From Amphritea sp. (GTDB taxonomy: Bacteria; Pseudomonadota; Gammaproteobacteria; Pseudomonadales; Nitrincolaceae), in NCBI GenBank assembly GCA_024679635.1, contig JAIBDA010000070.1, positions 1 to 7,136 on the forward strand: a stretch of 7,136 bases of DNA, in the 5' to 3' direction. Below the pieces are notes generated by a model, which ran no database searches, had not been told where the DNA came from, and was given only the letters and a program-made list of their open reading frames with translations. Shown piece by piece: positions 1 through 7,136 of this stretch (within the stretch, counting starts at the first letter, position 1; the number at the start of each line of letters is the position of its first letter). A program made the translations under genes and the position numbers.

Positions 1-95
1 GGTATGGTGAACGTTATCCGGTGGCGAGTAATGATAATTCTTCAGGGCGAGCTTTAAATCGCCGTGTAGAAGTGAATATCCGCGGACAACAATAA
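1..95 (+). CDS. OmpA-family protein, C-terminal end only (partial)
   Basis: Only the end of this gene is present. Reading codons from position 3 gives YGERYPVASNDNSS, then GRALNRRVEVNIRGQQ and a TAA stop at 93-95. The pattern GYGE..P.ASN....GR..NRRVEV is the hallmark end of the OmpA C-terminal (OmpA/MotB, peptidoglycan-binding) domain, in which the NRRVE helix-strand closes the fold. Such domains hold outer-membrane or lipoprotein partners to peptidoglycan in the periplasm. The N-terminal part, which would decide between an OmpA porin, a Pal-like lipoprotein and a flagellar MotY-type protein, lies off the left edge, so no symbol is given. MotY is worth considering because FlgT, encoded next door, works with MotX/MotY, but nothing in these 30 codons proves it. 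The stop codon is followed at once by hairpin array A and two terminators, so transcription of this gene ends here. Confidence 0.85.
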   Translation, partial: YGERYPVASNDNSSGRALNRRVEVNIRGQQ

Positions 96-174
96 CTCGC
101 TTCGCGAGAGTGGCTAGAACGGAGCCTTCGGCTCCTGCTCGTGGCTAGACGGAAACTTCGTTTCCTCGCTCGAA
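96..174 (+). repeat. hairpin array A: three perfect palindromes with TTC loops after the OmpA-family stop codon
   Basis: Three perfect stem-loops follow the stop codon: CTCGC-TTC-GCGAG at 96-108, GGAGCC-TTC-GGCTCC at 121-135, and GGAAAC-TTC-GTTTCC at 151-165. Each has a TTC triloop closed by a C-G pair, but all three stems have different sequences. The linkers are AGTGGCTAGAAC (109-120), TGCTCGTGGCTAGAC (136-150) and TCGCTCGAAAAAG (166-178). The same linkers recur, on the other strand, in array B behind flgT. These stems are not terminators themselves, since none is followed by a T-run; the terminator comes next at 189. They could be structured 3' UTR elements or a palindromic repeat family. 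The pairing is directly visible; the function is unknown. Confidence 0.8.
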
Positions 175-188
175 AAAGCAAAGACAAG

Positions 189-212
189 AACCGCCGATTG
201 GCGGTTTTTTTT
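189..212 (+). terminator. rho-independent terminator of the OmpA-family gene
   Basis: The stem AACCGCC (189-195) pairs perfectly with GGCGGTT (200-206) across a GATT loop. The last two T of the stem run into an eight-T tract ending at 212. It points rightwards and lies 93 bp downstream of the OmpA-family stop, behind hairpin array A. There is no matching T-run for the leftward direction, so it should serve only the + strand. Confidence 0.88.
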
Positions 213-237
213 CTGGTTTCTAACTCAAAGCGGACAT

Positions 238-269
238 AAAAAAAGAGAGCTGAAGAGCTCTCTTTTTTT
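238..269. terminator. bidirectional intrinsic terminator between the OmpA-family gene and flgT
   Basis: A 14-bp perfect inverted repeat has arms A7-GAGAGCT (238-251) and AGCTCTC-T7 (256-269) with a GAAG loop. The A-run on the left and the T-run on the right make it work in both directions. It backs up the terminator at 189-212 for rightward transcription and is the only clear terminator for leftward transcription of flgT. It sits between the two hairpin arrays. Confidence 0.88.
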
Positions 270-280
270 GTTTTTTTTCT

Positions 281-388
281 AGCAAGTAAAACGAAGTTTT
301 ACGTCGAGCAACGAGCAAGTGACGAAGTCACGTTCTAGCAAGCCGCGCAGCGGCGGTCTGCTTGGTAATAAGCGTTCCGCTTATTACC
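281..388 (-). repeat. hairpin array B: four palindromes behind flgT, in mirror orientation to array A
   Basis: Read on the minus strand after flgT, this holds an 11-bp stem GGTAATAAGCG/CGCTTATTACC (388-364) with a GAA loop. Next come GCCGC-TGC-GCGGC (354-342), GTGAC-TTC-GTCAC (331-319) and GTAAAAC-TTC-GTTTTAC (302-286). The flgT stop codon (386-384) lies inside the 5' arm of the first stem. The linkers TTGCTAGAAC and TTGCTCGTTGCTCGAC, and the tail TTGCTAGAAAAAAAAC, match those of array A at the same places, whereas the stems do not match. The orientation again follows the gene: the TTC loops are on the transcribed sense strand. The first stem differs (GAA loop) and may be a separate structure. 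Confidence 0.8.
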
Positions 389-1604
389 AGGCGATAACCA
401 CATCATCCGGTTGAATATTGTAAACAGCCCCGTCTTCCGAAAGCCGGCCTATAGCAAACATTGGTTGTACTTCGGTAACGGTCATCGTTTTGCGGGTGTT
501 GGTGAGTTGCACATGGCTGCGCATATCTTCAGTAAAGAAACTGGATTTACGGTAAACCGTTAATTTATCACCGGCGTTGATGCCAGATAAGGCGCCGGCA
601 TTGAACCAGAGGACGTTGCCGTCACTTTTAGTGATACGGGCTGAGAAGGGCATGCAGCGAAGCTCGTTATTCAGGTCGGAGGCGACTTGATTGATTAGCT
701 CGCGGGTCTGCTTGCCGTAATCCTGGCGCCAGAATTCGGCGCTGGCAAAGCCGGGGCGGGCTTCGGGTTCGAGGTTCCAGCGGCCAGCGGTGGCGTACTG
801 TTTGCTGAATAATAGCGCACCAGAGAAACCATCATGGATATACAGATCCAGCGCCAGACTGCGCAGATGGCGTTTGCTGCGGTAATCCATGCGGTTATAG
901 AAATCTACCAGAATATTGCGATTAGGGTCGATAACGGAGCTGTCTGACATGGTTATATCCCGGATTACCCCGGAGATAATGTATTGGACGTCTAGCTGGC
1001 GAGTATGATCTAGCACGGTGGTTAGGGCGCCAGCGCTGAGCTGTCGTGCCGGCGCAGTGGCTGCGGTTTGATGCATATTAAGCATGCCGGCGTTGAGTGC
1101 TCGAAGATTGCTCTTCTGATTGATCTGGTTGCTGAGAATATGGCTCAGTTCTGTTTGTATGTTGCTGAGATTGCCAAGATTAGCTTGCTGCGGGTAGAGC
1201 AGAGGAAAGGCCGTTATTGCTACAGATTTCTGGTATCCGTGACCGGAGACTCCTGCCGGACAGCCTTTCTCGAAATCGACGTTGGCGCGCACTTTAACCC
1301 ATAGCATCCGGCCCTGAATCTTTTCGTCCAGTACCTCTATATTGCTTACCATACCCAAGGTGCTGACCTGCATATTATCGATACTCAAGACCCCCTGTTC
1401 GATCGTCTGGGTGCTACTGACAATTGCGCTGGCCTGAAGGGAGGCTTGTTGTGTGGCGTTTTTAATCGCGGCCTGGCGAGCAGAATCGATATCTTTGTTA
1501 AAGATCAGCGCTCGGCCCTCCGCTTCCATCGTGACGGCGTGCAGTGACAGGCTGATAAAACTGATAAGTAAAACAGCTAGAATACGTAGCATAGGATTAA
1601 ACAT
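384..1604 (-). CDS. flgT: FlgT, periplasmic flagellar H-ring assembly protein
   Basis: FlgT forms part of the H-ring around the L and P rings of the flagellar basal body in Vibrio-like bacteria and is needed to place the MotX/MotY T-ring of sodium-driven motors. The 406-residue product starts with a Sec signal peptide: LRILAVLLISFISLSL, with likely cleavage after LHA at residue 23. Residues about 24-112 look like the N-terminal LPP20-like domain (MEAEGRA...LWVKVRANV). Residues about 125-320 form the middle, TolB-N-like domain. Residues about 321-406 form a small beta domain containing NAGALSGINAGDKLTVYR and ending in DDVVIAW. Two cysteines, C115 and C317, lie near the domain borders and could form a disulfide (inference). 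The chosen start is the first Met; a second Met at residue 5 would still leave a signal peptide, and neither has a strong ribosome binding site. The divergent flgO-flgP neighbours match the arrangement known for Vibrio, which strongly supports the call. The stop codon lies inside a hairpin of array B. Confidence 0.9.
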   Translation of the reverse strand: MFNPMLRILAVLLISFISLSLHAVTMEAEGRALIFNKDIDSARQAAIKNATQQASLQASAIVSSTQTIEQGVLSIDNMQVSTLGMVSNIEVLDEKIQGRMLWVKVRANVDFEKGCPAGVSGHGYQKSVAITAFPLLYPQQANLGNLSNIQTELSHILSNQINQKSNLRALNAGMLNMHQTAATAPARQLSAGALTTVLDHTRQLDVQYIISGVIRDITMSDSSVIDPNRNILVDFYNRMDYRSKRHLRSLALDLYIHDGFSGALLFSKQYATAGRWNLEPEARPGFASAEFWRQDYGKQTRELINQVASDLNNELRCMPFSARITKSDGNVLWFNAGALSGINAGDKLTVYRKSSFFTEDMRSHVQLTNTRKTMTVTEVQPMFAIGRLSEDGAVYNIQPDDVVIAW

Positions 1605-7028: not shown

Positions 7029-7136
7029 CTCTAAATTTGTGTAAATAAACGCAAGTTTTTAAATCCTCACATGTTACCGTCACATACCCTTGGGTGCCGC
7101 TTGCGGTTGGGGTATGGGGTGCATGGAAGCCTAACC
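7029..7136 (+). ncRNA. probable rpsB 5' leader RNA (t44/tff-like), truncated at the window edge
   Basis: About 108 bases of the leader follow the promoter at 6994-7022 without a coding region. CATACCC (7083-7089) pairs with GGGTATG (7110-7116), enclosing a small CCG/CGG hairpin around 7098-7107. GGTT at 7105-7108, inside that hairpin region, can pair with AACC at 7133-7136, which would make a pseudoknot. In gammaproteobacteria the gene divergent from map is rpsB, and its leader is the conserved t44/tff RNA through which ribosomal protein S2 represses rpsB-tsf. Position, promoter type and fold all fit, but I cannot run the family model and the rpsB start codon is outside the window. Confidence 0.6.

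What the first reader, a model, noticed from the sequence alone, without database searches (positions are those of the whole stretch)
96..388. Two mirror-image arrays of TTC-loop hairpins with conserved linkers but non-conserved stems
Array A (96-174, + strand) and array B (281-388, - strand) share their linkers in the same order: GCTAGAAC, then TGCTCGT[G/T]GCT[A/C]GAC, then GCT[A/C]GAAAAA. They also share the C-TTC-G hairpin centres. The stems between the linkers are all different (GGAGCC, GGAAAC, CTCGC against GTGAC, GTAAAAC, GCCGC), yet every one is perfectly self-complementary. Ordinary REP/BIME repeats keep the stem sequence, whereas here pairing is kept and stem sequence is free. That suggests either selection on RNA shape in 3' UTRs (a protein or RNase reading the CUUCG centre and the single-stranded linkers) or a palindrome-generating process such as template switching acting on a repeat family. 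Both arrays start right at a stop codon, are oriented with the gene they follow, and precede an intrinsic terminator. I do not recognise the family.
Basis: seen in the sequence. Interest (0 to 1): 0.75.

Follow-up and report, generated by a model that had tools for sequence, protein, structure and literature searches.

The report
Shape-conserved hairpin repeats after stop codons
Many marine bacteria of the genus Amphritea carry dozens of copies, some over a hundred, of a short repeat that folds into tiny hairpins just behind genes; the pairing and the joining sequences are kept while the hairpin letters vary, which looks more like a protein reading folded single-stranded DNA than like RNA structure.

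Summary
Window 96-174 (+) and 281-389 (-) carry seven perfect triloop hairpins behind an OmpA-like gene and flgT. They belong to a repeat family of Amphritea: 12 of 17 genomes match, up to 134 hits, almost none elsewhere. Covariation is strong. Stems are not free: a few recur, stems are largely kept at orthologous loci, and pairs next to linker and loop rarely vary. Arrays are directional 3'-end elements: between co-directional genes 58 are sense and 20 antisense; in convergent gaps 70 lie nearer the gene they follow, 13 nearer the other. No replication-strand bias in one genome. RNA wobble is not favoured: 12 G.U, 24 A.C. The tolerance pattern (perfect 5-bp stem, inner pairs free, one free loop base, two-base spacer to a -TAG tag, C|T on both sides) resembles the DNA specificity measured for Marinomonas TnpA-REP. 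Best reading: an orphan REP-like family read as single-stranded DNA hairpins and kept in sense in 3' UTRs. No cognate transposase was found; one RAYT in 30 loci lies between two such arrays, but inside other palindromes.

The parts
1..95 (+). 3' end of an OmpA-like gene; stop TAA 93-95
   Evidence: read from the sequence. The OmpA-like name is by recall; no family search was run on this fragment
96..108 (+). array A hairpin 1, CTCGC-TTC-GCGAG, directly behind the stop codon
112..120 (+). linker/tag GGCTAGAAC
   Evidence: same linker in other units
121..135 (+). array A hairpin 2, GGAGCC-TTC-GGCTCC
   Evidence: same stem recurs in A. atlantica
136..150 (+). linker TGCTCGTGGCTAGAC, candidate C|T sites inside GCT[AC]G
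   Evidence: cleavage role is inference
151..165 (+). array A hairpin 3, GGAAAC-TTC-GTTTCC
166..179 (+). end linker TCGCTCGAAAAAGC
   Evidence: similar ends (GCTAGAAAAAGC) in other copies
186..213 (+). terminator-like hairpin with T-run after array A
236..279 (.). long palindrome between the arrays, terminator-like on +; on - the T-run is inside the stem
   Evidence: the - reading is by eye
279..309 (-). array B last unit: GCTCGAC-GTAAAAC-TTC-GTTTTAC-TTGCTAG
312..339 (-). array B middle unit: GCTAGAAC-GTGAC-TTC-GTCAC-TTGCTCG
342..354 (-). array B hairpin GCCGC-TGC-GCGGC behind the linker GCAGACC
   Evidence: stem identical in the window and the five genomes with an array at this locus
363..389 (-). 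long stop-overlapping hairpin TGGTAATAAGCG-GAA-CGCTTATTACCA
   Evidence: a stop-overlapping palindrome stands alone at the array-less site in G013
384..1604 (-). flgT, the gene followed by array B (stop codon 384-386)
   Evidence: FlgT_N, FlgT_M, FlgT_C

Best explanation
The two arrays are copies of an Amphritea family of REP-like elements. The unit is [GYTMG]-A(A)C-[perfect stem, usually G-Y-N-R-C]-T-N-C-[stem']-T(T)-[GCTMG]; adjoining units run head to tail and share GCTAG-type linkers. Shown: genome-wide dispersal, covariation, bounded stem freedom, position behind stop codons in sense, presence/absence and unit-number differences at orthologous loci. Inferred: units were spread, and their pairing policed, by a single-strand-DNA hairpin nuclease of the TnpA-REP (RAYT) kind that reads the tag, the spacer, the loop and perfect pairing but is indifferent to the inner stem pairs, cutting at C|T inside GCTAG so that each unit is a TAG-AC-hairpin-TTGC module. 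Inferred: the sense 3'-UTR placement is a second filter (tolerance, or use as a 3'-end RNA element that shields mRNA ends or slows ribosomes near stops). The enzyme was probably lost or acts in trans. Enzyme, cut sites and RNA effect are all untested.
For: Covariation: on the best 150 of 236 R1 hits (122 distinct rows) 97.5% of cells pair and 160 cells changed on both sides against 51 in shuffles; slid structures 14-43% paired (the alignment was fitted to the model). There pairs 1 and 5 are nearly fixed (GC 120 of 122; CG 115 of 118), pairs 2 and 3 use four Watson-Crick types, pair 4 GC 75 and AU 43 of 121. Linker-only cores agree: pair 1 GC and pair 5 CG in 88 of 91 each. Corneloup 2021 (PMC8266576, section 20 read) reports for Marinomonas TnpA-Mb: 5-bp perfect REPs, two bases to GTAG, no effect of stem positions 2 and 3, less activity for position 4, mismatches harmful, three of four loop positions strict and one free, last two tag positions dominant with a CT site, cuts at CT and CA on both sides. 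Loops T-N-C in 79 of 91, i.e. GNA on the other strand; GNA loops are described as extraordinarily stable DNA mini-hairpins (PMC4686876 passages). No wobble preference. Sense 3'-end placement. flgT site without array in G013; one unit fewer behind ackA in G013 than in G001. Repeats and RAYT genes co-occur: 11 of 17 genomes have both, 4 neither (one-sided p 0.0099; confounded by kinship, and two of the 11 have only 1-2 weak repeat hits).
Against: No cognate RAYT. Y1 genes seen lie beside other palindromes: the MKGNSSALRKGR type beside GTAGGAGC-type ones in L058 and L059 and similar GC-rich ones in L060, L061, L068, L073; a second type beside GTAGGTTGGGAT or GGTGCGTTATAACGCACC ones in L063, L064, L285, L079, and none of that kind in L062, L065, L075; a third beside TTCCCACGC ones (L070 and L074 not looked at). 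R1 finds repeats in 3 of 30 loci of NF047646 hits (30 of 33 listed hits have a locus): L297 about 1 kb off, L305 about 0.1 kb behind the gene, and L296 on both sides of the gene, outside its TTCCCACGC palindromes. G005 has 17 repeats and no RAYT hit; G006 four RAYT hits and no repeat. The tag is CTAG, TTAG or CTCG, not GTAG. REP_Mb has a 4-nt loop, these 3. The number of further pair types does not exceed shuffles (268 of 500 reach it). Stems are nearly static at two orthologous loci, so little recent copying shows there. Strong transcription orientation is not predicted by a pure DNA parasite. A.C over G.U is only p = 0.065, and one extra unit behind ackA in G010 has two T.G pairs.
Confidence: 0.55

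Rival explanations
1. 3'-UTR RNA elements: transcribed hairpins selected for RNA pairing, protecting mRNA 3' ends or modulating termination and ribosome release.
For: 139 of 178 arrays have a same-direction gene on their 5' side (81 of these in convergent gaps, where that holds for either orientation); median distance to its stop 35 bp, 44 of 139 within 15 nt; 58 sense to 20 antisense between co-directional genes. In convergent gaps 70 lie nearer the gene they follow, 13 nearer the other. Opposite-strand neighbours within 400 bp: 23 +-, 0 -+. E. coli REPs within 15 nt of a stop are said to stall ribosomes (PMC12306157 passages). Stems are largely kept at flgT and ackA across species.
Against: Sense G.U is rarer than A.C (2 vs 9; 12 vs 24), the reverse of tolerated RNA wobble. 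Of three mismatched stems read at the two orthologous loci, two carry A.C (flgT in G003, ackA in G010) and one two G.U (extra ackA unit in G010). Terminators within 130 nt are not clearly more common after arrays than after other gene ends (21 of 191 vs 50 of 623, p 0.24). G003 shows no sense bias (6 to 10; 6 to 5).
Confidence: 0.25
2. Palindrome-generating replication: template switching between arms creates and repairs the hairpins, giving double changes without intermediates.
For: Double changes with few one-sided intermediates. One in-place loop inversion: TTC in G015, GAA in G008 and L004, same stem at flgT. Template switching can do this (PMC8794818, abstract and passages).
Against: Loops mostly keep T-N-C orientation relative to the linkers (206 of 273 distinct units); GAA occurs in 2 of 273. 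It does not explain the near-fixed outer pairs, the tag or dispersal.
Confidence: 0.12
3. Pure relics: perfect copies of a few master cassettes, neither selected nor active; low mismatch reflects age only.
For: Few recurrent stems dominate (GTCGC 64, GCGAC 60, GCGGC 47, GGAAAC 44, GTCAC 37 of 382 perfect units). Identical cassettes repeat within kilobases.
Against: A GTTGC stem behind ackA is kept in 7 of 8 genomes with arrays there, and GCCGC behind flgT in the window and all five genomes with arrays there. Conservation against flanking spacer was not measured.
Confidence: 0.08

Closest known systems
REP_Mb of REPtron Mb, Marinomonas sp. MWYL1 (group 3 TnpA-REP), Corneloup 2021, PMC8266576 (passages and section 20 seen)
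   Same: Short perfect 5-bp palindrome; two bases between tag and stem (here two or three); what varies and what is fixed here matches what the enzyme tolerates there; one free loop base; CT dinucleotides on both sides.
   Different: Tag CTAG/TTAG/CTCG rather than GTAG; 3-nt T-N-C loop rather than 4-nt; no cognate transposase found; no tested activity.
GTAG-REP superfamily (Di Nocera 2013, PMC3733652; abstract, passages, sections 5 and 15 seen)
   Same: High-copy extragenic palindromes; sub-families with alternative complementary stem residues; close to 3' ends of ORFs; tag often supplies the TAG stop.
   Different: GTAG tag not seen in its place; [quoted passage not shown] G.T pairing was often observed there, rare here.
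CGTC-REP superfamily (same paper, passages)
   Same: No dedicated transposase identified.
   Different: 8-9 bp stems that begin with AT pairs, 4-5 nt loops, CCA tails; predominantly alphaproteobacteria.
d(C-GNA-G) DNA mini-hairpins (PMC4686876 passages)
   Same: On the other strand the loops read C-GNA-G with a free middle base.
   Different: A physical motif, not a repeat family; that paper asks for at least two G-C pairs, and stems ending in AC have only one next to the loop.

Membership tests
Repetitive extragenic palindromes (broad sense) | high-copy palindromes, mostly extragenic | tested here: met
   22-134 R1 matches in 9 of 17 genomes (at most 150 candidates scored per genome); 105 of 113 hits in G013 outside called ORFs
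GTAG-REP superfamily | unpaired GTAG (or GYAG, GYRG, GTRG, GTMG) tag at one end | tested here: not met
   in the window and in the arrays found through flgT and ackA, without any tag pattern, the tag beside the stem is GCTAG, GTTAG, GCTCG or close. Family-wide searches imposed a G-Y-T-M-G form, so a GTAG-tagged subset would have been missed
GTAG-REP superfamily | RAYT gene flanked by the same repeats (REPtron) | tested here: not met
   30 loci of NF047646 hits: repeats in 3, in one (L296) on both sides but outside another palindrome pair that lies next to the gene
GTAG-REP superfamily | alternative complementary stem residues within a family | tested here: met
REP of group 3 TnpA-REP (REP_Mb type) | short perfect stem, two-base spacer, one-sided tag, CT sites on both sides | tested here: inconclusive
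   architecture matches but spacer is 2 or 3 bases, tag differs, loop is one base shorter
REP of group 3 TnpA-REP (REP_Mb type) | cleavage by its transposase | not testable with these tools
   needs biochemistry
CGTC-REP superfamily | 8-9 bp stem with two AT pairs first, 4-5 nt loop | tested here: not met
   346 of 527 units have 5-bp stems, 8 have 8-bp ones; first pair G-C in 220 of 273. The scan itself fixed the loop at 3 nt and the stem at 4-8 bp
Rfam RNA families | match to a curated family over the arrays | tested here: not met
   at gathering thresholds only t44 at 7048-7135
RNA element selected for pairing | G.U tolerated over A.C on the transcribed strand | tested here: not met
   12 G.U vs 24 A.C; 2 vs 9

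The most novel reading that the evidence does not exclude
A hairpin-DNA-guided element whose spread is coupled to transcription: a single-strand nuclease or transposase, indifferent to inner stem sequence, inserts units into single-stranded DNA exposed behind genes, so that arrays point with the transcript and show no replication-strand bias. The stem alphabet would then be a natural record of the enzyme's specificity.
Probability: 0.15. Interest if true: 0.8.

Novelty: new variant of a known kind. Interest (0 to 1): 0.52.

Why it matters
It is a genome-scale natural experiment on which letters of a hairpin matter: pairing, outer pairs, tag and two loop bases are held while inner pairs vary. 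It lets a wobble count set DNA-level against RNA-level explanations of REP elements, and gives a clear case of strand-directional 3'-end repeats whose function (mRNA ends or stop-codon proximity) could be tested at conserved loci such as ackA.

Tried and rejected
Integron attC sites: considered because GTTAGAC fits the R' box (recalled); rejected on inspection of G008:C21, where repeats sit between ordinary chromosomal genes such as a valyl-tRNA synthetase-like one (name by recall). Linker pattern counts: the reversed control was also high, so they were not used; model R1 replaced them. Nearest-neighbour folding of single hairpins gives the same energy on both strands and cannot show the GNA effect. 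The G013 counts include units beside ribosomal RNA operons. leave out eight G013 loci that I took to be rrn-linked: Rfam finds rRNA in seven (5S and 23S in L160, L189, L196, L198, L201; 16S in L159, L190) and none in L202, which was therefore dropped on shared sequence alone. Of 215 arrays, one search dropped these 8, 15 at edges, 10 duplicates and 4 in ORFs; one search did not remove duplicates. The looser one search gave 61 sense to 31 antisense. One search read ten minus-strand flgT loci on the wrong strand; re-read them, except G009, whose locus ends inside the gene. Terminator enrichment after arrays: not found. Plasmids: no match to array A. Genes are longest-ORF calls, not a trained gene finder. 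Paper searches (listings; word searches in PMC6006769 and PMC2817692: no hit) showed no report of this family in Amphritea; most subscription journals are not held.

Full report
WHAT IS THERE. The window is from an Amphritea relative: FlgT is 98% identical (best segment) to two Amphritea MAGs, one of them partial. The genes are an OmpA-like 3' end, flgT, flgO, a 160-aa ORF without a Pfam hit, a DUF1244 gene, glnD and a peptidase M24 gene. Between the convergent OmpA-like gene and flgT lie two arrays of perfect triloop hairpins joined by GCTAG-type linkers, each in sense with the gene it follows, with terminator-like palindromes between them. Seven of the window's 17 perfect triloop hairpins fall in 294 bases.

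A FAMILY. A covariance model of 27 positions (R1, built from 24 units of fetched loci) matches 12 of 17 genomes of the genus: 134, 123, 103, 96, 95, 91, 39, 31, 22, 17, 2 and 1 matches; five have none. At most 150 candidates per genome were scored. R1 finds array B but not array A of the window at E up to 1, so units with longer stems are undercounted. In the family 14 of 116 genomes match; the two beyond the genus set have 1 and 7. In an even draw from the order 2 of 390 match, one being G008 itself and the other with a single hit. Searches scored fewer candidates under stricter filters. No plasmid matched array A, and no Rfam family covers the arrays at gathering threshold.

THE UNIT. Linker-defined cores, taken without asking for pairing, number 99 distinct: 75 perfect, 11 with one mismatch, 5 with two, 8 with more. 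Among the 91 with at least three pairs, 79 loops read T-N-C. Over all fetched DNA, 527 linker-bounded units with at most two mismatches show 382 perfect stems of 33 kinds, five of which make up 252. On the best 150 of 236 R1 hits (122 distinct rows, fitted to the model) 97.5% of cells pair and 160 cells changed on both sides, against 51 in shuffles; sliding the partner by 1-3 columns gives 14-43% paired. The number of further pair types does not exceed shuffles (268 of 500). Outer and loop-closing pairs are almost fixed, pairs 2 and 3 take all four Watson-Crick types, and pair 4 is GC or AU in 118 of 121. The window's own first hairpin (C-G outer pair) is an exception.

STEMS WITHIN ONE LOCUS. 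Behind flgT I read 16 of 17 genomes (in G009 the locus ends inside the gene). Arrays stand in five, G001, G003, G008, G010 and G015, besides the window and L004; G007 has a degenerate remnant-like stretch and G014 a tandem heptamer. The second hairpin stem is GCCGC in the window and all five, with loops TGC, TAC, TTC and, in G008 and L004, GAA. The third is GTGAC or GCGAC; the fourth differs by one or more pairs. G013 has no array there, only a palindrome that overlaps the flgT stop and, read by eye, the stop of the opposing gene. Behind ackA all 17 regions were read: eight genomes have arrays, six of them ahead of a terminator-like hairpin (by eye); a GTTGC hairpin is present in seven of the eight, and G013 has only a GCGAC unit, as if the first of G001's two were lost. 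So letters differ between loci more than within one.

ORIENTATION. In G013 (one contig, dnaA found, dif placed by a recalled consensus with one mismatch), 88 of 105 intergenic units follow a same-direction gene (rrn-linked units included). In six genomes, with gene calls of at least 100 aa and 37 of 215 arrays dropped, 178 arrays divide into 81 convergent, 58 co-directional sense, 20 co-directional antisense and 19 divergent; median distance to the stop 35 bp, 44 of 139 within 15 nt. Convergent arrays count as following a gene whichever way they point, so the orientation tests are 58 to 20, and 70 to 13 for lying nearer the gene they follow in convergent gaps. Opposite-strand neighbours within 400 bp are 23 +- and 0 -+. 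The looser one search gave 61 sense to 31 antisense. G003 shows no sense bias (6 to 10, 6 to 5). Replication direction shows no effect in G013 (62 leading, 51 lagging; p 0.35). Terminators are not enriched after arrays by my detector (21 of 191 against 50 of 623).

DNA OR RNA. RNA selection should leave G.U pairs on the transcribed strand. Counts are 2 G.U to 9 A.C and 12 to 24 in 893 cells of 169 distinct units (p 0.065). This speaks against a wobble preference; it does not prove the opposite. At the two orthologous loci two mismatched stems carry A.C and one extra unit (ackA, G010) carries two T.G. On the other strand T-N-C reads G-N-A closed by C-G, a loop class described as extraordinarily stable in DNA (PMC4686876 passages), GAA more than GTA (PMC6479982 passages).

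CLOSEST MECHANISM. Corneloup 2021 (PMC8266576; passages and section 20) measured what TnpA-Mb of Marinomonas needs: a perfect 5-bp stem, two bases between tag and stem, indifference at stem positions 2 and 3, less activity when 4 is changed, three strict loop bases and one free, the last two tag bases for a CT site, and CT or CA cuts on both sides. The pattern of what varies here follows that list, and GCTAG linkers put C|T on both sides of each unit. This is a resemblance between a sequence census and another enzyme's assay, not a test; position numbering in the paper is assumed to start at the stem base.

THE MISSING ENZYME. NF047646 (REP-associated tyrosine transposase) hits 12 of 17 genomes. 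Several types were seen; many lie beside palindromes of other kinds, some beside none that I could see. R1 finds units in 3 of 30 such loci: about 1 kb off in L297, about 0.1 kb behind the gene in L305, and on both sides of the gene in L296, where an array plus terminator occurs twice outside the TTCCCACGC palindromes next to the gene. I read this as an insertion beside an array; a real association is not excluded. Presence of repeats and of RAYTs agrees in 15 of 17 genomes (p 0.0099), but four of the agreeing ones are a distant group (FlgT 60-63%).

VERDICT. A real, genus-level, directional REP-like family; broad REP criteria are met, the GTAG tag and REPtron criteria are not. I file it as a new variant of a known kind. 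Most likely units were dispersed and kept paired as DNA hairpins, with sense 3'-end placement kept by selection or by the way they insert.

Noticed in passing
window 7048-7135 (+): Rfam t44 RNA.
   Followed up: no
L058, L059 (flanks of RAYT genes): Amphritea has canonical RAYTs beside GTAG-type palindromes of their own (GTAGGAGCGGCG..., GCCCCTGGAAGGGGC), a second REP system in the same genomes.
   Followed up: partly
L296 and L305: A further RAYT type lies between TTCCCACGC palindromes; in L296 an array plus terminator occurs on both sides of it, once behind a ferredoxin-like gene (name by recall).
   Followed up: partly
L042:1075-1160; L216 downstream of flgT: Tandem heptamers (GCTCGTT)n and (TAGCGAG)n related to the linkers, hinting that linkers can expand on their own.
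   Followed up: no
L160, L189, L196, L198, L201: In G013 five loci carry near-identical arrays close behind a 5S rRNA gene.
   Followed up: partly
L155, L181, L176: A further hairpin class with a CAAG loop (for example GCTGAACAAGTTCAGC) precedes the first unit in several arrays.
   Followed up: no
window 112-150 and family linkers: Linkers of the GCTAGTGGCTAG form carry TAG triplets seven bases apart, so stops fall in successive frames behind the gene; in 20 of 142 cases the gene's stop lies at or past the start of the first linker.
   Followed up: partly
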